The notes under the pieces are model-generated. The model made no database searches. It had not been told where the DNA came from and saw only the letters and a program-made list of their open reading frames with translations. Below are positions 9,569 to 22,704 of a stretch of DNA of 64,000 nt, in pieces. Numbering within the stretch: the first letter of the stretch is position 1; every line of letters begins with the position of its first letter. The position numbers and the translations under genes are program-made. This DNA comes from Laccaria trichodermophora. Taxonomy: Eukaryota > Basidiomycota > Agaricomycetes > Agaricales > Hydnangiaceae. The stretch spans positions 3,038,001 through 3,102,000 of the forward strand of contig JACTVC010000004.1 in assembly GCA_018417955.1 (NCBI GenBank), written 5' to 3'.

Positions 9569-9626
9569 CTGCAAATAGATGTTCATCAGCACCTTATCCA
9601 CGTAAGCGCCGGGACATAACAGGTAA

Positions 9627-9631
9627 CGTGG
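9627..9631. repeat. Target-site duplication, left copy (CGTGG)
   Basis: CGTGG immediately precedes the 5' LTR and recurs at 22654-22658 immediately after the 3' LTR. Five bases is the usual duplication made by Ty3/Gypsy integrases. Confidence 0.85.
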
Positions 9632-9998
9632 TGTGATACCGTAGTAATATTTACCTACTCTTGCGTGACATGGTATCATCGTATTTACTCTTATTTTGTA
9701 TCTTGTTATAATGCTTTATGATAGATAAATAAAGCACTTGAAACTTCCACTACATATACATGTGGGCTGAGTCACACGCGATCGCTACGGCTAGACGACC
9801 TAACGTCTCCCCTCCGGGATATCAGAGCCCCGTGCTGGGTGACTGCACTCCTGTCCCAGGATCACAGGGAAAACCACACGTGGCTCCGCTTGTCGGAGTC
9901 ACAATCCGATCTCTCTCCCGCTTACCGCTTTGGCTCTCCTCCAAGGTTTCGCTACAGCGGACTCGCCTTGAAGTCCCTAACGAACAGCAAGTTTCATA
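9632..9998 (+). repeat. 5' LTR
   Basis: 367 bp, identical to 22287-22653 except the next-to-last base (T here, C in the 3' copy). It starts TGTGATACC. An AATAAA-like signal (AAATAAAGC) around 9728-9736 could serve polyadenylation. Confidence 0.93.
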
Positions 9999-9999
9999 A

Positions 10000-10012
10000 T
10001 GGTGGGGGCACC
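10000..10012 (+). promoter_or_regulatory. Probable minus-strand primer-binding site
   Basis: TGGTGGGGGCACC begins one base after the 5' LTR. It starts with the TGG expected for complementarity to a tRNA CCA end, so the primer would be a tRNA ending GTGCCCCCACCA. I have not identified that tRNA. Confidence 0.5.
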
Positions 10013-10602
10013 GCGGACTTCATCAACATGAAGTCCCTGAGTGCCTAACTACGGAGGAAACACAACAGGCGAGCGCCATCAACACAATCTGTCAACTAAC
10101 GACGGTCTCTAGGCTTTCCACCCCTTTGAATCTTCGAACGGATGGAACGTCAATCAAGGGCCCTACAAAACTCTCGTTAGCGCGCATCCCCGCTGCTCTC
10201 GAGGGTAACAATGCAACGAACGACCCTACCGAACCTACGTTAGCGCGTTCACCCGCTGCTCTCGAAGGTAGCGACGCGGACGACGATTCTTCATCATCCG
10301 TAACTCTAGTGTCGTTCACCCAACCGACGAGTAGTTCAGACAACCTCTACAAACCAGACGATTCGACAATCGCTTCTATTAAACCACCTCTCCCAAACTA
10401 CACGAGCTATGCCCTACGACCCCTACTACTTCTGAACTTCTCGGCCAAGGAGGAGCCCCCTCCAGGAGAAGGAAATTCTCGCGTGAAGGCGACCCTAACC
10501 CCAGACCTGTCTGGGAAATTCCTACCCTGTCCATACCCTGATCATCGGCCAACCCTACTTAAACAGGGCGCTTGCCAGCGAACTCCCTCATCCTATCCCT
10601 CC

Positions 10603-13600
10603 ATGAGTTCAACAACCCCCTCCGGCGGAGACGAAGCTCTAAGGAATAAGACGCGTAATACCAACAATTCAGCCAGCCGCGAATTCGTAACGCCGCTGAC
10701 GACCAGAAGGAAAGGAAAGGGCGTGGCCATGACCGAGGAACCAGACCCCGAAGCAACCTCCCCCACAGATGGCAGCCATATGCCATCTTCGGGTCCAGTG
10801 CTCACTGGACCTCACCTACCTGACAAAGTCGGTTCAGGAGAATCCCCCTCGTTCCCCGCTGCTTCCCAAAGCGCGAAACGCGTACCCGTCGCGAATAGAA
10901 ACGCGAGCACACAACCCGCTGCTAATAAAAGCGCGAGTGCACTCCCCGCTGCTCCCAGAAGCGCGAGTAACTCGAATAAGGCTCCACGAAAGCCCTCGAC
11001 CTCAGGCGCGAATCAACTCGCAGCCTTCAGTCAGCCAGCGCAAGCTGCTCCCTCTGACGCAGCCCTAGCCCTTAGAGACGAGTTACTGAACCTTCAAACC
11101 GCTGTCCGAAAGGAGACCATCGACGACGAAGCGCGTACGTCTGTCTCGAGTCATACCGAAGGTAGAGGGACACGACGTGCTGCTTATACGGCGACTTCTA
11201 TGGAGCACGAGGAGACTGAGTACAAAACAATCTTCTGGGACATAGAGGGAGTCAGGAACTTGCCTATATGGGCAGAACCTATCATCCGATCGTCGGAGCG
11301 AATGTTCGGCGTGTTCGACCCCTCCGCGGACGAGGACGCCCTCGTACCCCTCGGCGCCATCGATGGGATAATCCCGGGCAGGACGAAGCTCGACTGCGAT
11401 CGGCTGAGATGTGCCATCGAGTTAGTCTATACTACCCCCAGGGACTGTCGATGGGAGAATCTAGGCACCGCAGTCCGAAAGTTCGCCGAATACGAAGTCA
11501 GTAGAAACGATCTAGTGAAGTACACCGGACTAGACGTCACCTACGGAATTGAACGTACTCTACTCTTGGAAGCCTCGCAAGTTGTTGTAACCGTTGACCA
11601 AGTGTTACAAGTCCTGGCGGACTTCTTCCGCAAGCGCGAGAGAGAACGCTTCGTTCTTGACCAGCAGTTCGCGTTCTTAAAACTCATAGCCTCTAGCAAG
11701 AGTAGAACCGAAATCCTGGCTACGTATCGGATTCTGCAACATCGAACCACCATAGCCTCAAAACACTTGGTGCTGCAAATCAATGCCCTCACGAAAATGT
11801 ATAGATCGGGTTCTGATCAGATGTCTATTAGTTCTTATGAATCGACTAGACCGTCCCTACGATCCGCGTTCGGCAGCGAGTCTGCTAGGAAGGAGGTCGG
11901 CAAGTTGCTTGCAAGACCAGATTACTTCAGCAAGATGCCCCAGGACCTAGCGGAGATCGCTGCATATTTGCGCGATCGAGCCTATAAAGATAGGCCTGTC
12001 CCCAAAGAATTCACCATCCATCGGACTCGTAACGCCCTTCCATCGCTAAGAACCGGATCCTCTACCTCAAGCGAGCCCACCACCCATACTACTGGACCTG
12101 AATCTGCGCGAAACCCCGCTGCAAGTGAAGGTCAGAGCGTCAGGTTCGTTACTGAACCGCCTATCCCTGGATCTATATCGGTTCTTCTTTCTAAAAAGCA
12201 CCCCGTAACACGACTACCTGGAATAGGAGCGGTTGGCGTGTCCGCAGTAGGAACTTCTTCTGTAAAAACTACGACCACCAATAACGCTCCAGCGACCGTG
12301 ATCTCCGACATTAACAATGACAACCTTAGGGCACCTGCAGCGTTTACTTCGCGCATACCCAGCCCTAAGTCATGGACCAGCTACACGTTCAGACAGAGGA
12401 GCAACCCTACGGGAGTCCAATCACCGTCTGAAGCGAACGGCGACGGCAAAAACCACCGTGGAATCTCTACCGCTCGTAATGACGGTCCCCCCCCGGGAGG
12501 ATCACCTCCTTCCAGCAACAACGACGACCATGGAAGACGACCTAACCCGGATCCTAACGGATCGAACCCCCCAGCCTCCTGGTACGTTCCCCCTAGGGGT
12601 AATGGAGGAGGAGGCGGCGGAGGAGGCGGTGGAGGAGGCGGTGGAAGAGGCGGTGGAGGAAGTGGTGGAGGGGGAGACGACGGGAACCCGTCCTCTCAAG
12701 AACCACCACCCTGGTGGCGAACTCCAGAGGAATGGCAAATTAATCATAAGTTGAACTCGACTGTCCTACCTGAATGGAACGGTGCTGGAGATACCGCTAT
12801 CGACTACTTGAGTGCGATGGGATTCCTATCCGGCTTGGGCCCTAAGATGAAGGAGGGTATAGCACAGCTAGCACCCTTTAAGTGGACCTCCTACGCCAAG
12901 AGCTGGTGGGAAACTTTACCCGCTCCCGATCAAGCTTACTTCTCGATCAACTGGGACAATATGATGGTCGGCATCCAATCACATTTCTTGGACGAGGAAT
13001 GGGTGCGCGAGCGAACTTTCGAATTCGACGAAATGACATTCAGGAATAAGGGTCACGAACAGGAAAGTCCCCTGGAATATATACAACGACGGATCCGTCA
13101 TCACCTCTTCCTGCACCCGGACGAAGTCGACGGACCCACCGCGGTGGCACGTATTCTCAGACGCCAACCAGTGGAGTGGACTCATTACTTAAACGAGACT
13201 CTCTGTCCTTCTATCCTAGCCACCCAATCAACGGCTAAAAAGATGAATAATAGCCTTATGGCATCTTGGCAGCAGGCTGAGCGTAATCGCAAGCCAGCGC
13301 CGTTCTACCGGAACCACCGTTCGCGCGCTGTGCACGCAGCGGAGGTGGAACCGCATAATCATGATATCGCTCTGGAGCCGTGCTCCTGCGACGAAGGGGA
13401 TGACGAAGATAAAAGTGTAAACTTCGTCAATAACTCAAACCGGAAGTCTAAGTCTAGACCTCCCCGTACTGGGGGGCCTAAGGATTCGACTAAGCCGGAT
13501 TTCCCTCACGGAAAGACAAGGAATGGGGTGACTTTCGAACGAGACGATTCTAAAGTCAGCGCAAAGGAGCCTCACGGTGATTGCTACATCTGCACTAGTC

Positions 13601-16600
13601 CCAAACATTTCCATAGAGACTGCCCCCATTATGGTAAATGGAACGTCCTTAGGAATGCGCATCAGATACATGTAGATTGGGATTCTGGTGAGGAGGAGGA
13701 AGCGGACAGATTGTACTTAGCTATGCTGGCCGAAACTAAGACCACTATTTCCGCTTGCGAGAGTGAGAGCATGCTCAGACAATACGCCCTAGACATCCAC
13801 AGTTCCCAAGGCGGGTTCAAGGAAGCACGCGCTGCTATGAAGCGCGAAATACTCGCTGCAAATGTGCGCGAAAAGGGACTTCACAAGGATAAATTGCCCG
13901 ACGCGAATCTTCATAAAGTATACCCATTGCACCGTAACGAACAAAAAGTCAAAGGCAAACTAAAGGAATCTTTACGATGTCCCGCGCCTCCTAAACGAGT
14001 CTCTGCTAAAACTACTACTCGAATCTATGAACCTGGAAAGGTGTTCCCCGCCGTCAAGGGTCGGTCCTTGCCAGAAGGAATGGGTTCGCTAGGAACAAAG
14101 GCTCTCCATATGCGCGCTAAGATTGATAATCTAGAGTCCGATTGCGTCAAGGCGCGACTTGACTCAGGGGCGGACATTACTCTTATTTCCGAAGAATTCT
14201 GGCAGTCCATGACAAATTCTCCCCGTCTGCGAGAAGGAATGAGGATGAAATTATATCATCTCACGGGAGGAGCCAAGGTTTTAGGCTATATAAAGACGGA
14301 ACTCTTCGTAGTGGCTCAAGACGAGTCCATCGTTAGCTTTGAACTGGAAGCTTACGTTGTAAGGAACATGAACGTCCCTCTGCTATTAGGAGAAGATTTC
14401 CAGACCACGTACGAACTAAGCGTCATCAGGCATGCCACGGGGCTTTGTGAAGTACTGGTCGGGAAGTCTGGGCGCGTGTTACCCGCCGCCTCGGCTCACA
14501 ACGTAGACTTAGGCTTCGAAATCAGAGTGGCGCATGTCACTCAGTCCTTTATTCGTAGGAAAGCTGTAACTCGTGGTAAACCAAAGGGTGGTGTGAAGAA
14601 GCTGACGGAAGTAACGGCTTCTGAGGATGCGCTGATTCAACCCTATCACGTCCGAAACATCGAGGTAAACGCCGCCTTCGAGGGACGAGAAGATTGGATA
14701 GTTGAAAAGATCATCATTGGGACCGACGATCAAAATGTGATGGCCGCGCCTACTACTTGGATAAATGCCTCCTGCCCCTACCTGCCAATCGCCAACACTA
14801 GTCCGCATCCGCGTTACGTTAGGATGGGAGAAGTAGTGGGATACCTGATCGACCCTGACTCTTCTTTGGACAAACCCAAGGATGAAGACCACCTCGCCAA
14901 AATGGTGGCTTCTACAGAAGCATTGAAGAAAACGATAATGGGAACTTTAAAGGCTCAAGACTTAGCCACAGCTGAAAATTTAAAGGCGGATACTCCTGGT
15001 CATGACGATCGTTTCGAAAATGACACCTCGTGGGGACCTAAGACGACGGCGGTGCCTGAGGATCCCTTAGAAGGCAAGGTAGAAGAATTGGTCAACCTAG
15101 GACCAGATATACCTGAGGAATACCGCGAAAGGCTGTCCGAGGTGTTGCGCAGGAATGCTGCAGCCTTCGGAGTAGACGGACGATTGGGACATGTGGATGC
15201 GCGAGTACGAATTCCGCTGCAACCCAACACGCTACCCATCTCAGAACCCATGTACGGCGCCTCACCTGCGAAAAGAGAAGTTATAGATCAACAAATGAAG
15301 ACGTGGTTCGAAGCGGGAGTCATCGAACCGTCGACTAGCCCTTGGGGTTTTCCGGCTCTCGTCGTCTATCGTAACGGCAAGCCTCGCCTAGTTATCGACT
15401 ATCGGAAATTGAATGCTAAAACCATCCCGGACGAATTCCCTATACCACGACAATCCGAAATCATACAAGCCTTGTCTGGAGCCCAAGTTTTGTCATCCTT
15501 CGATGCCCTCGCCGGCTTCACTCAACTCGAAATGGCAGACGACGACAAGGAAAAAACCGCATTCCGTTGTCATTTAGGTCTATGGCAATTCAAGAGAATG
15601 CCTTTCGGTCTGAGGAATGGACCCTCAATATTCCAAAGGATCATGCAGGGAGTACTAGCTCCCTTCCTGTGGCTATTCGCCCTGGTCTATATCGACGACA
15701 TCGTGATATACTCCAAGAACTGGGAAGACCACCTTCTCCATCTCGATCGTGTATTGAGCGCTATAGCCACCTCCGGAATAACTCTATCTCCCGCCAAGTG
15801 TTTTGTGGGATTCTCGTCCATACTACTACTAGGGCAAAAGGTTTCTCGTTTAGGTTTATCTACTCACAAAGAGAAAGTCCAAGCTATAATGGAGCTCGCA
15901 CGGCCCACGTCCGTATCAGACCTTCAGAAGTTTCTGGGAATGGTCGTCTATTTCTCTACCTACATTCCTTTCTATTCGATGATCGCCGCGCCGCTGTTCG
16001 ACCTCCTTAAGAAGGGAGTCAAATGGCGATGGCGCGCGGAACAAGAAGCCGCGTTCGAACAAGCTAAAGAGGCCCTTGCAAACGCCCCCGTTCTGGGTCA
16101 CCCTATAATCAATAGAGCCTATAGATTGTACACGGACGCGTCAGATATAGCTCTAGGCGCCAGCCTCCAGCAAGTCCAGACCATCTTAGTGAAGGACCTG
16201 AAAGGGACTCCCTGTTATGCTAGACTCGAAGCCGCGTGGAAGGATGGCAAGGAAGTACCTCAACTAATAGCCAGATTACATAAGGAGAAGCATGAAGTTG
16301 ACCAGCCAGACGTATGGGGAACTTCACTTGATGAAACTACGGTGCATGTCGAAAGAGTCATCGCCTACTGGAGTCGAACTTTCAAATCCGCCGAAAAGAA
16401 CTATAGTGCGACAGAGAGAGAAGCGCTGGCAGCTAAGGAAGCGCTCGTCAAATTCCAGCCCTTTATAGAAGGGGAAGATATCACTTTAATCACAGATCAC
16501 GCTGCCTTGGTGTGGGCGCGAGTCTATGAGAACGCTAACCGCCGCCTGGCAGCTTGGGGGGCTGTATTCGCGGCTTACCCCGGACTTAGGATAGTACATC

Positions 16601-18612
16601 GAGCAGGGAGAGTTCATTCCAATGTCGATCCTCTTTCGCGATTAATAAGGATACCGCCACACGATTCGCCGCTCAGCGATGACATCGTCCCTATAGAACA
16701 AGATCCCGTCAAACGCAACATCGCTCAGAAGGCCGAAGATAGGATATTCAGAGCTGCTGCTCCTAAAGCCGCCTTCTGCGTGATGCGGTGGGAGGATGTC
16801 ATTGACCGACAGGCATCCGCGGTTCGAACCAGACGACAGCTCGCTGCCGATGAAGAGCGCGACATCCCGAATAAAACTAAGTTCGCTGTCAATGAAGAGC
16901 GCGAAATCCTGAACAAATCCAAAGGTAACGAGCGACACGAATCGACAAAGGAAGAGGAGGGGAATGAGCAAGGAGAAGTTCTACCTTTTTCCAAGTCTGA
17001 CCATTGGACCTATCCGACTGGCAGTAAGCCTACGGAGCTGCCACCTGACGAAGAATGGACGAAACGAACCCAATTGCTTATAGCAGTCGATCCTCAGATC
17101 TGCAAAGAATTCGCGGATGGCTACGAGAGGGACAAGTTCTTCGCGCCACGCTATATTCAAATTCAACCTAATGAACGAACTGTAATCTCTGCAAGTCACT
17201 TCCAGAGAGGACAAGACGGACTACTCTACTTTACGGACGCCGCTTGGAAAACACGATTATGTGTGCCCAATTCCAAAATCAATTACGTACTACGGTGGAT
17301 ACACGAATCCCCCTACGAGAGCGCTCATGCTGGACCACGCCGCTTCTTAGCGCGACTCCAGGAGCTATTCTACTGGCCAACCATGAACAAGGACGCCGAA
17401 GCTTATGCGACTACATGCGACGTTTGCCAAAAGATCAAAACGGACCATCGTGCTAAGATGGGCGCGCTCAGGCCCGCGCATATACCGTCTAGGCCATTCT
17501 CCACGGTCTCCATGGATATGATAACGGGATTACCGCCCTCAGGAGAACAAAAATACACTGCTATACTAGTAATTGTGGATAAGCTTACTAAATTCGCCAT
17601 TATAATCCCTACCCACTCAACTCTGACTCAGGAAGGGTTTGCTAAATTATTCGTCGAGAGGGTCGTCAACGTCTATGGTCTACCTGAAGTCATAATCTCG
17701 GATCGAGATAAACGCTGGGCCACCATCTTTTGGAGATCGGTCGTTTCCAACTACGGAAGCGTTATGGCTCTCTCGTCCGCCCATCACCCGCAGACGGATG
17801 GACAGACCGAAATCCTCAATGCTACCATTGAACAAATGCTTCGCGCTTTTGTCTCCTCTGACAAGGAGAGTTGGTCGAACTGGCTTAGTGTCTTAGCCTA
17901 TTCGTACAACAGCAGCGTGCATTCTTCTACTAAATACTCTCCTAATTTCCTGCTCATGGGATACAACCCGAGAACTTCAGTAAGCGCGATAATACCGGAA
18001 ATCGACCCCGCGCGTCGCCCCTTTCTTCCAAGCCAATCAGCCGAAGACTTTGTCGAAGCCTTGGAAGTTCATCGCAACTTCGCTAAGGATGCTATCGCCC
18101 TAGCTCAAGACCGACAGGCCAAAGCCTATGATAAGAAAAGGCGACCAGTACAAGAGCTGAAAGTCGGAGATTACGCCTTAGTGAATCCGCATTCTCTCGA
18201 GTTAGTAGACGTCGAAGGGACTGGCAAGAAACTCATTCAACGAATGATTGGCCCTTTCGAAGTTGTCGAAAGAATCAACCCCATGGTGTATCGTCTACGT
18301 CTACCGGACACCTATTCGATGCACCCTGTTTTTAATTTGGAACATTTAAAGAAATACGAAGTTTCGCCTGAACGTTTCGGGGAGCGCACCGAACTGCCTT
18401 CGACTCGCGAACTACGAGCCTCCGAAGAATACGAAGTGGAATCAATCCTAGGACATCGCCTCGTCGGCAAAAAGAAGGCGAACCGAAGGATGTTCCTAGT
18501 CAGATGGAAGGGCTATGGCCCCGCGGACGATTCCTGGGTCTCAGAATACGACTTACGCAATTCTGCTCAACTCAAAAGAAGCTACCTGGACTCCAAGGGA
18601 CTAGCTATCTGA
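10603..18612 (+). CDS. Fused Gag-Pol polyprotein of the chromovirus
   Basis: 2,669 residues from the first in-frame ATG at 10603. The same frame is open back to about 10126 without an ATG. It makes the particle protein and the replication and integration enzymes. Approximate residues: polar N-terminal region 1-660; Gly-rich run 667-693; gag core (FKWTSYAKSWWETLP) 709-843; CCHC zinc knuckle (CYICTSPKHFHRDC) 994-1007; aspartic protease DSGAD at 1187; reverse transcriptase with VYIDDIVIYS, YIDD at 1696-1699; RNase H from YTDASD at 1844, with about 60 extra residues before the AYWSRTF segment; integrase with an HHCC finger near 2235-2280 and DD35E residues D2305, D2367, E2403; chromodomain (FLVRWKGYGPADDSW) about 2607-2669. 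No frameshift or stop separates gag from pol, so a single polyprotein is expected. All catalytic residues are present. Confidence 0.95.
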   Translation: MSSTTPSGGDEALRNKTRNTNNSASREFVTPLTTRRKGKGVAMTEEPDPEATSPTDGSHMPSSGPVLTGPHLPDKVGSGESPSFPAASQSAKRVPVANRNASTQPAANKSASALPAAPRSASNSNKAPRKPSTSGANQLAAFSQPAQAAPSDAALALRDELLNLQTAVRKETIDDEARTSVSSHTEGRGTRRAAYTATSMEHEETEYKTIFWDIEGVRNLPIWAEPIIRSSERMFGVFDPSADEDALVPLGAIDGIIPGRTKLDCDRLRCAIELVYTTPRDCRWENLGTAVRKFAEYEVSRNDLVKYTGLDVTYGIERTLLLEASQVVVTVDQVLQVLADFFRKRERERFVLDQQFAFLKLIASSKSRTEILATYRILQHRTTIASKHLVLQINALTKMYRSGSDQMSISSYESTRPSLRSAFGSESARKEVGKLLARPDYFSKMPQDLAEIAAYLRDRAYKDRPVPKEFTIHRTRNALPSLRTGSSTSSEPTTHTTGPESARNPAASEGQSVRFVTEPPIPGSISVLLSKKHPVTRLPGIGAVGVSAVGTSSVKTTTTNNAPATVISDINNDNLRAPAAFTSRIPSPKSWTSYTFRQRSNPTGVQSPSEANGDGKNHRGISTARNDGPPPGGSPPSSNNDDHGRRPNPDPNGSNPPASWYVPPRGNGGGGGGGGGGGGGGRGGGGSGGGGDDGNPSSQEPPPWWRTPEEWQINHKLNSTVLPEWNGAGDTAIDYLSAMGFLSGLGPKMKEGIAQLAPFKWTSYAKSWWETLPAPDQAYFSINWDNMMVGIQSHFLDEEWVRERTFEFDEMTFRNKGHEQESPLEYIQRRIRHHLFLHPDEVDGPTAVARILRRQPVEWTHYLNETLCPSILATQSTAKKMNNSLMASWQQAERNRKPAPFYRNHRSRAVHAAEVEPHNHDIALEPCSCDEGDDEDKSVNFVNNSNRKSKSRPPRTGGPKDSTKPDFPHGKTRNGVTFERDDSKVSAKEPHGDCYICTSPKHFHRDCPHYGKWNVLRNAHQIHVDWDSGEEEEADRLYLAMLAETKTTISACESESMLRQYALDIHSSQGGFKEARAAMKREILAANVREKGLHKDKLPDANLHKVYPLHRNEQKVKGKLKESLRCPAPPKRVSAKTTTRIYEPGKVFPAVKGRSLPEGMGSLGTKALHMRAKIDNLESDCVKARLDSGADITLISEEFWQSMTNSPRLREGMRMKLYHLTGGAKVLGYIKTELFVVAQDESIVSFELEAYVVRNMNVPLLLGEDFQTTYELSVIRHATGLCEVLVGKSGRVLPAASAHNVDLGFEIRVAHVTQSFIRRKAVTRGKPKGGVKKLTEVTASEDALIQPYHVRNIEVNAAFEGREDWIVEKIIIGTDDQNVMAAPTTWINASCPYLPIANTSPHPRYVRMGEVVGYLIDPDSSLDKPKDEDHLAKMVASTEALKKTIMGTLKAQDLATAENLKADTPGHDDRFENDTSWGPKTTAVPEDPLEGKVEELVNLGPDIPEEYRERLSEVLRRNAAAFGVDGRLGHVDARVRIPLQPNTLPISEPMYGASPAKREVIDQQMKTWFEAGVIEPSTSPWGFPALVVYRNGKPRLVIDYRKLNAKTIPDEFPIPRQSEIIQALSGAQVLSSFDALAGFTQLEMADDDKEKTAFRCHLGLWQFKRMPFGLRNGPSIFQRIMQGVLAPFLWLFALVYIDDIVIYSKNWEDHLLHLDRVLSAIATSGITLSPAKCFVGFSSILLLGQKVSRLGLSTHKEKVQAIMELARPTSVSDLQKFLGMVVYFSTYIPFYSMIAAPLFDLLKKGVKWRWRAEQEAAFEQAKEALANAPVLGHPIINRAYRLYTDASDIALGASLQQVQTILVKDLKGTPCYARLEAAWKDGKEVPQLIARLHKEKHEVDQPDVWGTSLDETTVHVERVIAYWSRTFKSAEKNYSATEREALAAKEALVKFQPFIEGEDITLITDHAALVWARVYENANRRLAAWGAVFAAYPGLRIVHRAGRVHSNVDPLSRLIRIPPHDSPLSDDIVPIEQDPVKRNIAQKAEDRIFRAAAPKAAFCVMRWEDVIDRQASAVRTRRQLAADEERDIPNKTKFAVNEEREILNKSKGNERHESTKEEEGNEQGEVLPFSKSDHWTYPTGSKPTELPPDEEWTKRTQLLIAVDPQICKEFADGYERDKFFAPRYIQIQPNERTVISASHFQRGQDGLLYFTDAAWKTRLCVPNSKINYVLRWIHESPYESAHAGPRRFLARLQELFYWPTMNKDAEAYATTCDVCQKIKTDHRAKMGALRPAHIPSRPFSTVSMDMITGLPPSGEQKYTAILVIVDKLTKFAIIIPTHSTLTQEGFAKLFVERVVNVYGLPEVIISDRDKRWATIFWRSVVSNYGSVMALSSAHHPQTDGQTEILNATIEQMLRAFVSSDKESWSNWLSVLAYSYNSSVHSSTKYSPNFLLMGYNPRTSVSAIIPEIDPARRPFLPSQSAEDFVEALEVHRNFAKDAIALAQDRQAKAYDKKRRPVQELKVGDYALVNPHSLELVDVEGTGKKLIQRMIGPFEVVERINPMVYRLRLPDTYSMHPVFNLEHLKKYEVSPERFGERTELPSTRELRASEEYEVESILGHRLVGKKKANRRMFLVRWKGYGPADDSWVSEYDLRNSAQLKRSYLDSKGLAI

Positions 18613-18819
18613 AGCTCCCGAACTGGACCCTCTCCACTACATTAGAAACCTCGAACCCTAACCTATCCAAGGATCATTAGTAATACTGTATATAACATTT
18701 GAGCTCCGAAAACTCCGCACTTTCCACGTATATAGTGATTTGAACCATTCCCTCTTTTAAACATTCCAGACGTGGTATCCCGCTGCTTTCGAGCGCGACT
18801 ACCCTCGAGTCCGATACCC
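18613..18819 (+). other. Spacer between gag-pol and the second ORF
   Basis: A 207-bp non-coding gap. It contains TATA-like TGTATATAAC near 18688 and GTATATAG near 18729. A pyrimidine tract ending TTCCAG at about 18769 could act as a splice acceptor. Either an internal promoter or splicing could express the second ORF; the sequence alone does not decide. Confidence 0.4.
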
Positions 18820-21800
18820 ATGGCTGGGAGACTCGGCCACGTCTTTGGGAAGAACAACCATGATACCAGGCGATACTCTCCTAGGCGGAATCCTAGCTTT
18901 GCGGGTTACGACCAAATCCCTCGCATTCCACCTCCGCCGCCTTACGACCTCCCTATTTCAGTCCACCGTAGACTAGTTGGCATCAAGGATCGTCTCTGGG
19001 AAATAACTTCGCCAAACTCCCTTCAAAACGCCTTCTGCCCAGGAATACGCCCTGACAACCTCAACCTTCGAGTCAATTTCTTCGATGAACAACACCGTCG
19101 TTACGATGGCCACATGGGGCCTTTCGACCCTACGAGGAACCCTCAACTACACTTACCGGGTAAGGAATGGCGAGCTTTGATTATAGGACCCGCTGCGGGC
19201 AGTCCGCGCGAAAACCCCGAGTACGAAGTTGCTACCAACTGCTGGAAGAGTGACGACGCCCCCGCCTTCGACACGGGACGTATCCACGACAGCTACATCG
19301 ACAAACTCATCAATCTCAATCAGGAGGTGGACCGGAGAATGGAGGTTCTACACAAGGAATATGTCAATCATCACTTTCTGGAACCCTCGCACCGAGCGTT
19401 GTGGAGTACTGCCGTCCGACCGGCCATTCCCACCTCAGAGAACCTCGACTCACTCAGGTTGATCAGGCGATTCCCATTAGCAGTTGACTGGATTATGGAA
19501 GCTCAGCGAGGATTGAAGGACAAACGAGCCTTCGTGGATTATGTTTCCAGACTTCAGGCCGCCCCGTTCTGGATGCCAGATGTGGATGCTGAAGTAGCCA
19601 TGGCTGATGACCGCTACTTGGGAGTCTGGTTGAATGGGATGGACGAGAGGCTAGCGCGTTGGTATCTGAAGGAAAGAATACCGTGTTTCATAGCACGAGA
19701 AGTTTCGTCCATTGAGCGCGTTTTACTCGCTGCTCGAGAACGGATGGTGGATTTCGCAGCCGGAACTAGTGCTTCATCTATCCATTGGGGCGTTAACGAC
19801 TACGATTCAAGGGCTATAACTCACGGAGACCTCTCCCTGTCCGATACAACCTCCTTCCATGACCCCGGTTGGGTATGGTCTCAAGCCATCGACGTTGAAC
19901 CTCAATCCCCTACATCAGAGCCTACAGCGGAATCCACGTCTAAATACGAACCCCCTCCTTTGGATGTCGTCACGATCGCGAACGATCGTGTACCTTGGAT
20001 CAGGCCTCCTCCTGTCAAAAAGGCTGCCACAAGCCGCCCCAATGCGCCGACCCATGAGCGAAAAAGGTGGATAAAATTCGTGGAGAACCACCAACCCGAA
20101 GGAACCTTCAGGGAGGTCGGTGCGAGAACGGTTCCAGACCACAGAACCCACTCCATGTTTGATCGGGATAAACGCTGGCATATTTTCTTCCTCAGACCCC
20201 CCAAAGTGCCGGAAGGTTGTGTGTCCGACCCCGCTGTGTTTGGTCAACCTTGCCCGAAGGGGACTTACAAGGGCATAAACAAGAAGCGATTCGTTCGACC
20301 GTCTTGGATTTACCAGACATTGGACCCTTTGCCTACGGACGTGGGAAGGAAGGCTCCAGTGCCAAAACCGGAAGACTTGCCGACTCTGAATAAAACCCCC
20401 CGCCCCACTCCTGACGACGATAGCGATAGTGACAATGATTATTACCCTGACTTGGGTGATCAAGCCCCAGGGGTGCGGAATACGGCTGCGGCCACCACCG
20501 ATTCGTCTATGAGCGCGATTTCTATGCCCGCTGCTCAGACTACGGAGATTGAACCTGCTACGCAGGATACTGAGGCTCAAACCGCTGCCATAGGCGCGAC
20601 CTCGAGGACGGAAGTGACCAGAGATCCGTCTGTCCCCATCGCCCCAGCCTTACCTCTCCCTGTGACGAATCGAGCACGAGAGGAGGACGAGATTTCCTGG
20701 GGAGATGACGAATCAACCCATGAACCTATGGGCCCTCAGATTCCCCCTCTATCCTTCACCGTGGATTCGGAAATCATTTCGGAAATCGTTCCCTCAGTAG
20801 ATCCCTTGGAATTCGCCTCCTCCTTCCTAATGTTGTACGGGTTACCCTCTGCAGAAGGATTCTCTACGGTACAGAAGATGATTACGTCAATTGCCGCTCG
20901 TCTTCACTTGACGGTCAGACAAGTATTCAGAGTCAGCGCCGACCGCCACCAAAGTTACTGGTTCGAAATGGAATCCGTGGATCAAGCTCGGCAGATGAGG
21001 ACGCACATGCACCACAGACAGGAAAACGGGATCGAATTACTAGTTACCTATGCTGATTACGAGAACTATGTGGGAGCTCTCGCTCGTTCCTCCCATATAT
21101 GGCCGGATCCATCCCCCAGTGTCGATAGCCAAATTGCGACCCCTTTCCTGCCAGAAACGTCCGCCGCGAGCTCTACATCTCGACGTCAAACCAGCAAGGA
21201 GCGGTATCGGACTCGTGATTCTCGTCGAAGGTCGCCTTCACCAGATCGCTACCGAACTTACAGGAGACCTTCCCCCCTACCCCGTCAACGATCCCCTCCC
21301 CGTTCAACCTACCAACGGAGGAGGTATCAGCGTTCTCCATCTCCTCGTTCTCGTTCTCGCACCCCTTATCGCCGTTCCAGGTCCCCTGAGCCAAGAGAAT
21401 ACCGTCCATCCAAGGAGTCAGCGGTTACACGGCCCCCGAGAAAACAAGTCCCCCTGGATTCCTCAATGGCTCGAACCTCTGATAAAGAAGCGATGATGCA
21501 GGTTCCCCCCTTGCCCATTCTCCCTAGCATGCCAGCCTTCACCGGATTGCCACACAACGCCCCGCTGCCCTTTGGCGCGAACGTTGCCTTTATGTGGTCC
21601 CCCTCTGGTAACACTTTTAGTCCGGTCCTCCTACAAGGGAATACTACTGTATTACCCTATCCGTTGCCACCCGCGGGACCGACTCCCAGTGCCCTGCTAC
21701 CATGGCCTGTAGCCGCTGCGCTGCCTAGTTCAAATGCACAGATATCCCCTCGTCCGCAGGCTGTCCCGAGGAACTCGCTCGTTACGCCGTTAGCCTCCAG

Positions 21801-22227
21801 GATCTCAACCTCGTTGGGACCCCGGCCTAGCTCCCCGCCTCCCACTCCGTCACAACCTACCCTTATGTCTCGAATGACGGATCACCTGTCGGCAAGGCTT
21901 AGCGATCCAGAGGTTCCGGCTTCACTGGCCACGAGGTTGACAGACCCTACCAGACGGACGTTAGTCGATCGTTTAGAGAGTGCAGATTTTATGGCGGTCG
22001 ACCAACCTGCGCAATCTTCCTTCATCAGTGACAACGCATTCACCCCGTCTGGTGGTAGCCCCCCTTATAGTCGGGAGCCCATGGATGAAGATCCCGCCGA
22101 TAACGAAGACGAAGGGGTGAGTGACTACAAGAGAACGAAAAGAGGACGACGAAGTGGACAGAAAATCCAATGGTACAGGAAGCGTGACGAGGAACGCGAG
22201 GAGCGAAAACGTCGACGCCGCCGTTGA
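18820..22227 (+). CDS. Second retrotransposon ORF: RRM-like and RS-rich protein of unknown role (env position)
   Basis: 1,135 residues from the ATG at 18820; the frame is open upstream from a GTG at 18772. I do not know this family by name. No signal peptide or membrane span is visible, so it is not an envelope protein. Visible regions: a structured N-terminal part, about residues 80-320, with YLGVWLNGMDERLARWYLKE and GRIHDSYIDKLINLNQEVD; an acidic, low-complexity middle (DDDSDSDNDYYPD); an RRM-like fold, about 669-750, with FLMLYGLP resembling RNP2 and SYWFEMESVDQA resembling RNP1; a dense arginine/serine domain, about 788-867 (RRRSPSPDRYR, RSPSPRSRSRTPYRRSRSP); a Pro-rich stretch; and a strongly basic tail (KRGRRSGQK, RKRRRRR) suggesting nuclear import. 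By inference it is an SR-like RNA-binding factor acting on the element's RNA or its splicing. Confidence 0.75.
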   Translation: MAGRLGHVFGKNNHDTRRYSPRRNPSFAGYDQIPRIPPPPPYDLPISVHRRLVGIKDRLWEITSPNSLQNAFCPGIRPDNLNLRVNFFDEQHRRYDGHMGPFDPTRNPQLHLPGKEWRALIIGPAAGSPRENPEYEVATNCWKSDDAPAFDTGRIHDSYIDKLINLNQEVDRRMEVLHKEYVNHHFLEPSHRALWSTAVRPAIPTSENLDSLRLIRRFPLAVDWIMEAQRGLKDKRAFVDYVSRLQAAPFWMPDVDAEVAMADDRYLGVWLNGMDERLARWYLKERIPCFIAREVSSIERVLLAARERMVDFAAGTSASSIHWGVNDYDSRAITHGDLSLSDTTSFHDPGWVWSQAIDVEPQSPTSEPTAESTSKYEPPPLDVVTIANDRVPWIRPPPVKKAATSRPNAPTHERKRWIKFVENHQPEGTFREVGARTVPDHRTHSMFDRDKRWHIFFLRPPKVPEGCVSDPAVFGQPCPKGTYKGINKKRFVRPSWIYQTLDPLPTDVGRKAPVPKPEDLPTLNKTPRPTPDDDSDSDNDYYPDLGDQAPGVRNTAAATTDSSMSAISMPAAQTTEIEPATQDTEAQTAAIGATSRTEVTRDPSVPIAPALPLPVTNRAREEDEISWGDDESTHEPMGPQIPPLSFTVDSEIISEIVPSVDPLEFASSFLMLYGLPSAEGFSTVQKMITSIAARLHLTVRQVFRVSADRHQSYWFEMESVDQARQMRTHMHHRQENGIELLVTYADYENYVGALARSSHIWPDPSPSVDSQIATPFLPETSAASSTSRRQTSKERYRTRDSRRRSPSPDRYRTYRRPSPLPRQRSPPRSTYQRRRYQRSPSPRSRSRTPYRRSRSPEPREYRPSKESAVTRPPRKQVPLDSSMARTSDKEAMMQVPPLPILPSMPAFTGLPHNAPLPFGANVAFMWSPSGNTFSPVLLQGNTTVLPYPLPPAGPTPSALLPWPVAAALPSSNAQISPRPQAVPRNSLVTPLASRISTSLGPRPSSPPPTPSQPTLMSRMTDHLSARLSDPEVPASLATRLTDPTRRTLVDRLESADFMAVDQPAQSSFISDNAFTPSGGSPPYSREPMDEDPADNEDEGVSDYKRTKRGRRSGQKIQWYRKRDEEREERKRRRRR

Positions 22228-22276
22228 AAGGGATTTCTTGCTTTTTTTTTTTTTTTGAACGATGCTCCAATCTCAC

Positions 22277-22283
22277 GGGGGGG
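22277..22283 (+). promoter_or_regulatory. Polypurine (G-run) tract before the 3' LTR
   Basis: Seven G residues followed by CTT sit directly before the 3' LTR at 22287, where plus-strand DNA synthesis is primed in LTR elements. An oligo-T run lies just upstream (22243-22256). Confidence 0.55.
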
Positions 22284-22286
22284 CTT

Positions 22287-22653
22287 TGTGATACCGTAGT
22301 AATATTTACCTACTCTTGCGTGACATGGTATCATCGTATTTACTCTTATTTTGTATCTTGTTATAATGCTTTATGATAGATAAATAAAGCACTTGAAACT
22401 TCCACTACATATACATGTGGGCTGAGTCACACGCGATCGCTACGGCTAGACGACCTAACGTCTCCCCTCCGGGATATCAGAGCCCCGTGCTGGGTGACTG
22501 CACTCCTGTCCCAGGATCACAGGGAAAACCACACGTGGCTCCGCTTGTCGGAGTCACAATCCGATCTCTCTCCCGCTTACCGCTTTGGCTCTCCTCCAAG
22601 GTTTCGCTACAGCGGACTCGCCTTGAAGTCCCTAACGAACAGCAAGTTTCACA
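22287..22653 (+). repeat. 3' LTR
   Basis: 367 bp, matching 9632-9998 at all but one base. It ends TCACA, the inverse of its TGTGA start, and is followed by the CGTGG target duplication at 22654-22658. Confidence 0.93.
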
Positions 22654-22704
22654 CGTGGCAAGAAGCATGGTAGAAGACCCTGAAAAGACAACAAAAAGAC
22701 ATAC

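What the first reader, a model, noticed from the sequence alone, without database searches (positions are those of the whole stretch)
18820..22227. Retrotransposon encodes an SR-protein-like RNA-binding factor where env would be
Downstream of integrase/chromodomain the element has a 1,135-codon intact ORF with no signal peptide or membrane span. Seen directly: an RRM-like block (FLMLYGLP ... SYWFEMESVDQA), a dense RS domain (RSPSPRSRSRTPYRRSRSP) and an Arg-rich tail. Established: RRM plus RS is the architecture of host SR splicing factors, while third ORFs of Ty3/Gypsy elements are normally env-like. Inference: the element carries its own RNA-handling or splicing regulator, perhaps to control splicing of its own RNA or to allow host introns that contain it to be removed.
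Basis: partly seen in the sequence, partly recalled or inferred. Interest (0 to 1): 0.88.

Follow-up and report, generated by a model that had tools for sequence, protein, structure and literature searches.

The report
Retrotransposon RNA-binding protein and hairpin barcode
A likely fungal retrotransposon encodes a third, selectively maintained protein with one domain predicted to fold like a common RNA-binding domain, and its coding strand repeats one pattern, predicted to form a bulged hairpin, 20 times; the protein would likely help tag and package the element's own RNA.

Summary
The ORF is real: 18820-22227, 1135 codons, third ORF of a young Ty3/Gypsy chromovirus. It is no one-off capture: relatives lie at 30 fetched places of the genome, 16 full-length and open, 26 of 30 with pol just upstream, under purifying selection (dN/dS 0.16-0.17). 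Residues 661-760 are predicted to fold as an RRM, but no RRM sequence family matches. The RS stretch is weakly conserved and absent as such from sister elements, so 'SR splicing factor' is not supported; an element-specific RNA-binding protein is likely. No membrane span was seen: not env-like. Unexpected: the sense strand carries one recurrent module (CGC-N-GCX with X'GCGCG, two topologies) at 20 non-overlapping places; shuffles give about 0.01. With X and X' left free they pair in 12 of 13 sites, using all four Watson-Crick types. The five most synonymously constrained windows of ORF3 are its five module sites. The intergenic copy has a covarying outer stem. A divergent family whose pol lacks the RT core keeps modules at homologous places. 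Best reading: dispersed recognition or packaging sites for an element protein. Which protein reads them (ORF3 or Gag) is untested, and other species could not be searched.

The parts
9627..9631 (.). target-site duplication, left copy (CGTGG)
   Evidence: read by eye; matches 22654-22658
9632..9998 (+). 5' LTR
   Evidence: 365 identical bases with the 3' LTR; 367 bp with one difference if the ends are read as ..TTTC(T/C)A
10126..18612 (+). gag-pol ORF, 2828 codons (zinc knuckle at residue 1153, YIDD at 1855, chromodomain 2769-2821)
18820..22227 (+). ORF3, 1135 codons
   Evidence: relatives at 30 fetched places of the genome
18820..20394 (+). ORF3 N-terminal half (1-525), shared with both sister ORF3 lineages; fold not assigned
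20800..21099 (+). RRM-like fold, residues 661-760
21205..21384 (+). RS-rich stretch, residues 796-855
21520..21729 (+). C-block, residues 901-970, best conserved part of ORF3
   Evidence: pairwise identity 0.79
22120..22224 (+). basic C-terminal tail, residues 1101-1135
10179..10197 (+). RNA module, permuted form (T2)
10242..10260 (+). RNA module T2
10857..10876 (+). RNA module, hairpin form (T1)
10917..10936 (+). RNA module T1
10947..10966 (+). RNA module T1 (the T2 match at 10930-10953 re-uses arms of this and the previous site)
11005..11025 (+). RNA module T2
11958..11975 (+). RNA module T1 with A-U closing pair
12105..12123 (+). RNA module T2
13830..13847 (+). RNA module T1
13854..13871 (+). 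RNA module T1 with A-U closing pair
14471..14490 (+). RNA module T2
15198..15221 (+). RNA module T2
16500..16521 (+). RNA module T1
17338..17355 (+). RNA module T1 in integrase, most synonymously constrained window of the pol segment tested
18781..18798 (+). RNA module T1, non-coding, between gag-pol and ORF3, with covarying outer stem
19191..19211 (+). RNA module T1 with G-C closing pair (ORF3)
19715..19734 (+). RNA module T2 (ORF3)
20512..20535 (+). RNA module T2 (ORF3)
20583..20599 (+). RNA module T1 (ORF3)
21563..21580 (+). RNA module T1 (ORF3, inside the C-block)
22287..22653 (+). 3' LTR
22654..22658 (.). target-site duplication, right copy (CGTGG)

Best explanation
ORF3 is a conserved, selectively maintained third protein of a clade of chromoviruses (likely fungal), predicted to contain one RRM-like fold, and it would most likely act as an element-specific RNA-binding protein that helps mark and package the element's own RNA, which carries one recurrent module, predicted to form a bulged hairpin, at 20 non-overlapping places. 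Shown by calls: the ORF, its copies, its selection, the module, its sense-strand bias, its covarying pair and its synonymous constraint. Predicted: the RRM fold. Inferred: that the module forms in the RNA in vivo, that an element protein binds it, and that the purpose is selection of element RNA for particle assembly (nuclear export of unspliced RNA is the next choice).
Against: No binding data. None of 18 RRM segments matches Pfam RRM_1 and the profile finds no PDB sequence at E 10, so RNA binding by this RRM is not shown. Sister lineage A has N-half and RRM but no module in 11 loci; sister B has neither, so RRM and module do not track each other. The reversed-pattern control is high for the C-G form (78 against 132). 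The bulged pairing is in the minimum-energy fold of 5 of 8 sites only; z-scores run from -0.7 to -3.0. Outer stem not supported at the IN site (1648 of 5000) and ORF3a (2669 of 5000), weakly at ORF3b (88 of 5000). 16 of 19 distinct coding strand-A copies stand in one codon phase, reading x-Ala-Ala, so some protein-level bias is possible. T2 was defined after seeing two ORF3 windows.
Confidence: 0.45

Rival explanations
1. The zinc knuckle of Gag reads the modules, and ORF3 does something else, such as nuclear import or a scaffold role.
For: Gag has a CX2CX4HX4C knuckle at residue 1153; the C6 family keeps a gag piece at 37% identity; sister A ORF3 has an RRM without modules.
Against: Sister B elements have gag at 43-49% over most of the query and no module in the 3 loci seen, and no T-A type match listed near their C1 copy; the ORF3 C-block does go with the module.
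Confidence: 0.3
2. A host protein, not an element protein, binds the modules, for example for nuclear export or stability of unspliced RNA; several element families share the site.
For: Module pattern lies in clusters at places without a listed integrase or gag match, e.g. C10:423666-429515; L062 shares little but module sites with the window element.
Against: Sister chromoviruses in the same host lack it.
Confidence: 0.12
3. One reading: ORF3 is an SR-type splicing regulator of the element.
For: RRM-like fold and RS stretch in one protein; a splice-acceptor-like stretch precedes the ATG in this copy (by eye).
Against: RS stretch weakly conserved and not above shuffles in 0 of 4 sister proteins; no RRM_1 match in 18 of 18 segments; two thirds of the protein belong to neither part.
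Confidence: 0.08
4. The repeated pattern is a by-product of Ala-Ala / Ser-Ala protein repeats or of GC-rich composition.
For: 16 of 19 coding copies in one codon phase; gag N-terminal copies lie in a repeat-like region.
Against: Non-coding copy at 18781 with covarying outer stem; codons fixed where synonymous sites elsewhere are saturated; X-X' pairing; shuffles near zero.
Confidence: 0.03
5. ORF3 is an env-like protein or a passenger host gene.
For: Position between pol and 3' LTR.
Against: No membrane span; present across the clade, with relatives only beside pol or as fragments as far as seen; purifying selection.
Confidence: 0.02

Closest known systems
[quoted passage not shown] PMC7264820 passages; PMC5408684 abstract)
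   Same: Third sense ORF between pol and 3' LTR, kept across copies, not clearly env.
   Different: Here an RRM-like fold is predicted, selection is measured, and the ORF shares the element with a recurrent RNA module. The text seen of PMC2864245 does not say what the fungal ORFs encode, so identity with them could not be tested.
Dispersed packaging signals of ssRNA viruses (MS2 and others; PMC6281560 abstract and one section, PMC4751978 abstract)
   Same: Many similar stem-loops with a shared recognition feature spread over the genomic RNA, coding and non-coding.
   Different: An LTR retrotransposon; arms nearly fixed instead of loops; two permuted topologies; no protein contact shown.
SR splicing factors
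   Same: RRM-like fold plus an RS-rich stretch.
   Different: RRM-type sequence family not matched, RS stretch not conserved, two further conserved domains, encoded by an element.
LINE ORF1p RNA-binding proteins with an RRM (search listing only; details recalled)
   Same: Element-encoded protein with an RRM in an RNP with its own RNA.
   Different: No sequence relation tested; LTR element; ORF is third, not first.
Ty1 packaging signal and Gag (PMC8396678 passages)
   Same: Cis sequence on element RNA preferred by an element protein.
   Different: One 5' region with a pseudoknot there; about 20 copies of one module here.

Membership tests
Ty3/Gypsy chromovirus | RT, RNase H, integrase with chromodomain between LTRs | tested here: met
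   rve core below its cut-off
SR protein | RRM of the RRM_1 sequence family | tested here: not met
   0 of 18 segments match RRM_1 at E <= 10; 0 PDB sequences at E <= 10
SR protein | RRM fold | tested here: met
SR protein | conserved RS domain | tested here: not met
   above every shuffle in 12 of 16 full-length copies, 0 of 4 sister proteins; identity 0.42
SR protein | acts in splicing | not testable with these tools
   needs RNA-seq or assay
env-like protein | membrane span | tested here: not met
   hydropathy maximum 1.1-1.4 in 5 proteins
env-like protein | signal peptide | not tested
   no predictor at hand; N-terminus is polar by eye
dispersed packaging signals | multiple similar structured sites over the genomic RNA | tested here: met
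dispersed packaging signals | bound by the assembling protein | not testable with these tools
   needs binding or CLIP
known Rfam RNA family | match to an Rfam model | tested here: not met
   no match at E <= 1 over 9600-22700

The most novel reading that the evidence does not exclude
A clade of LTR retrotransposons writes the same bulged RNA duplex about twenty times across its whole RNA, in coding and non-coding stretches and in two permuted topologies, as a barcode that a dedicated third protein reads to pick out its own genome; families that have lost their own enzymes copy the barcode to ride along.
Probability: 0.33. Interest if true: 0.88.

Novelty: new variant of a known kind. Interest (0 to 1): 0.78.

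Why it matters
How LTR retrotransposons choose their own RNA among cellular RNAs is poorly settled (for Ty1 the in vitro preference of Gag is weak: PMC8396678, passages). A repeated, covarying module with a small sequence code makes the question directly testable with short RNAs and single protein domains. It would also carry the idea of dispersed packaging signals from RNA viruses to retrotransposons and give a sequence handle for finding elements that are moved in trans.

Full report
What was claimed and what is there. The ORF at 18820-22227 is open for 1135 codons. Upstream lies a 2828-codon gag-pol ORF with RT, RNase H, integrase zinc domain and chromodomain. LTRs share 365 identical bases; read with the neighbouring bases they are 9632-9998 and 22287-22653, with one difference, flanked by CGTGG on both sides (by eye). 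The copy is therefore young. A copy with one amino-acid-changing difference in ORF3 lies about 110 kb away on the same contig.

The ORF belongs to the element. A protein search of the same genome gave 48 matches and 30 fetched loci, L009-L038. Pol C-terminus was found in the short upstream flank of 26 of 30. 16 of 30 have a full-length open ORF, some of them near-identical copies. For eleven distinct copies identity to the window copy is 52-93%. dN/dS over the ORF is 0.17 (L009-L011) and 0.16 (L024-L027), the two pairs with unsaturated dS; two more give 0.09-0.10 and two are saturated. By part, for these two pairs: N-half 0.09/0.10, RRM 0.06/0.12, C-block 0.00/0.06, tail 0.00/0.17, RS stretch 0.27/0.43, linker 526-655 0.57/0.30. 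Integrase and ORF3 identities correlate (Spearman 0.45 over 36 dependent pairs of 9 copies).

Sister ORF3s. Integrase matches fall into classes of about 83-100%, 62-69% and 46-59% identity, apart from short pieces. In the middle class one lineage (L040, L043, L044) has an ORF3 of 868-883 aa with the N-half at about 30% and an RRM-like segment but no RS stretch; the other (L053, L054; 983-994 aa in the fetched stretch) has the N-half and a basic tail but no detectable RRM. One element of the third class has a 922-codon ORF without detectable similarity (L041). So the shared core of ORF3 is the N-half and the basic tail; RRM and RS are modular additions. N-half fold is unknown.

The RNA module. 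Codon alignment of ORF3 showed codons fixed in all 11 copies although synonymous sites are near saturation. They spell one pattern: strand A 5'-CGC N GC X, strand B 5'-X' GC GCG, usually followed by A, which can pair with N bulged. It occurs as A-loop-B (T1) and, permuted, as B-loop-A (T2). In the element there are 12 T1 and 9 T2 matches on the sense strand; one T2 match re-uses arms of two neighbouring T1 sites, leaving 20 separate places. 300 shuffles give means of 0.010 and 0.003. The antisense matches, one of each form, fall on sites with a G-C pair read backwards (19191, and 13322, which the T2 scan with free ends lists). The rest of the window has none. In 35 clade loci T1 is 115 sense and 0 antisense, T2 50 and 21 (the 21 presumably again the backwards reading, not checked one by one); these counts share sites by descent. 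Sister A (11 loci), sister B (3), L041 and 8 host RRM loci have none.

Tests of the pairing. With X and X' free, 12 of 13 sites in the element and 53 of 60 distinct clade sequences pair by Watson-Crick (1 more G-U), with four pair types: T-A 20, C-G 19, G-C 11, A-T 3. Other stem pairs vary little; their rare variants are mixed: Watson-Crick 4, G-U 5, unpaired 14 of 23 variant sequences, so covariation rests on X-X' and the outer stem. The five most constrained 9-codon windows in ORF3 are exactly its five module sites. In the C-terminal pol segment (12 of 14 copies used; two with stops left out) the top window is the 17338 site. At the non-coding 18781 site, 14 distinct copies have an outer stem whose two sides fit each other better than swapped sides (13.1 against 8.3, sd 0.9, 0 of 5000); the same holds for 7 gag sites (0 of 5000), weakly for ORF3b (88 of 5000), not for IN or ORF3a. 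Folding of short pieces puts the bulged helix in the minimum-energy fold of 5 of 8 sites. A covariance model built from 18 sites finds the eight training sites of the window at E 0.001 or better, then 16497 (0.014), 13851 (0.04) and 19188 (0.059), all sense. Rfam has no match.

Beyond the clade. The T-A form occurs 303 times in the genome against 22 for the reversed pattern, the C-G form 132 against 78; lists are cut at 100 rows. A family at C6, with similar gag pieces at C11, C12, C67 and C76 (37% identity, bits 96.9-97.9), was read in three stretches (L059-L061). Its pol alignment jumps from residue 1826 to 2057 of the window pol, a gap that contains YIDD at 1855; it keeps integrase (35%), the ORF3 N-half (26%) and the C-block (37%) and modules at the places of 17338 and 19715 and about 13830. 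I infer that it cannot make its own RT and is moved in trans. L062, from another cluster, has a 666-codon open frame without detectable gag, pol or ORF3 similarity; its two best DNA matches to the window element are the module sites 10854-10880 and 10944-10969 (E 5e-4 and 0.02).

Mechanism. The module is sense-biased, spread over the whole RNA, kept at synonymous sites and kept where the enzyme is lost. That is what a cis-acting recognition site would look like; packaging is my first choice. ORF3 is a conserved partner protein of RNA-binding type. The C-block is present in the clade and in the C6 family, both with modules, and not found in 4 sister proteins (best E 0.56) from lineages without; this rests on few families. 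The RRM does not track the module. ORF3 as reader is therefore a guess at a little under even odds, with the Gag knuckle as the main rival.

Limits. The large protein database was switched off, so nothing outside this genome was searched by protein. T1 was defined from sites in gag, the intergenic stretch and ORF3, T2 from two ORF3 windows; the free-end tests and the seven T2 sites in gag-pol (one overlapping T1) are the more independent part. Dinucleotide shuffles do not keep codon structure. 16 of 19 distinct coding strand-A copies stand in one codon phase.

Noticed in passing
18663-18720 and the matching stretch in 22 clade sequences: A short motif, mostly TACT[AG]TACAG followed by ..TT-AAA-CTCCGA, about 150 bases before the ORF3 ATG; changed to TACTGTATATAA in the window copy. 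Promoter, splice or other signal unknown.
   Followed up: partly
L041:194-2959: A chromovirus of the 46-59% integrase class has a different 922-codon third ORF with its own RS-like stretch and no detectable similarity to this ORF3.
   Followed up: partly
L062 (C10:427300-429300): A 666-codon open frame with no detectable gag, pol or ORF3 similarity but with two T1 modules; possibly a non-autonomous family.
   Followed up: partly
10151-10276: Two tandem 63-base units in the leader/gag start; each holds a T2 module.
   Followed up: yes
L053:72-3020: Sister ORF3 has a cysteine cluster (HNCASCHNCASCG) where the window ORF3 has none.
   Followed up: no
C1:3171442 and C1:3180529, minus strand: Two identical C-G type matches 9.1 kb apart flank a sister element on its antisense strand, perhaps in its LTRs.
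   Followed up: no
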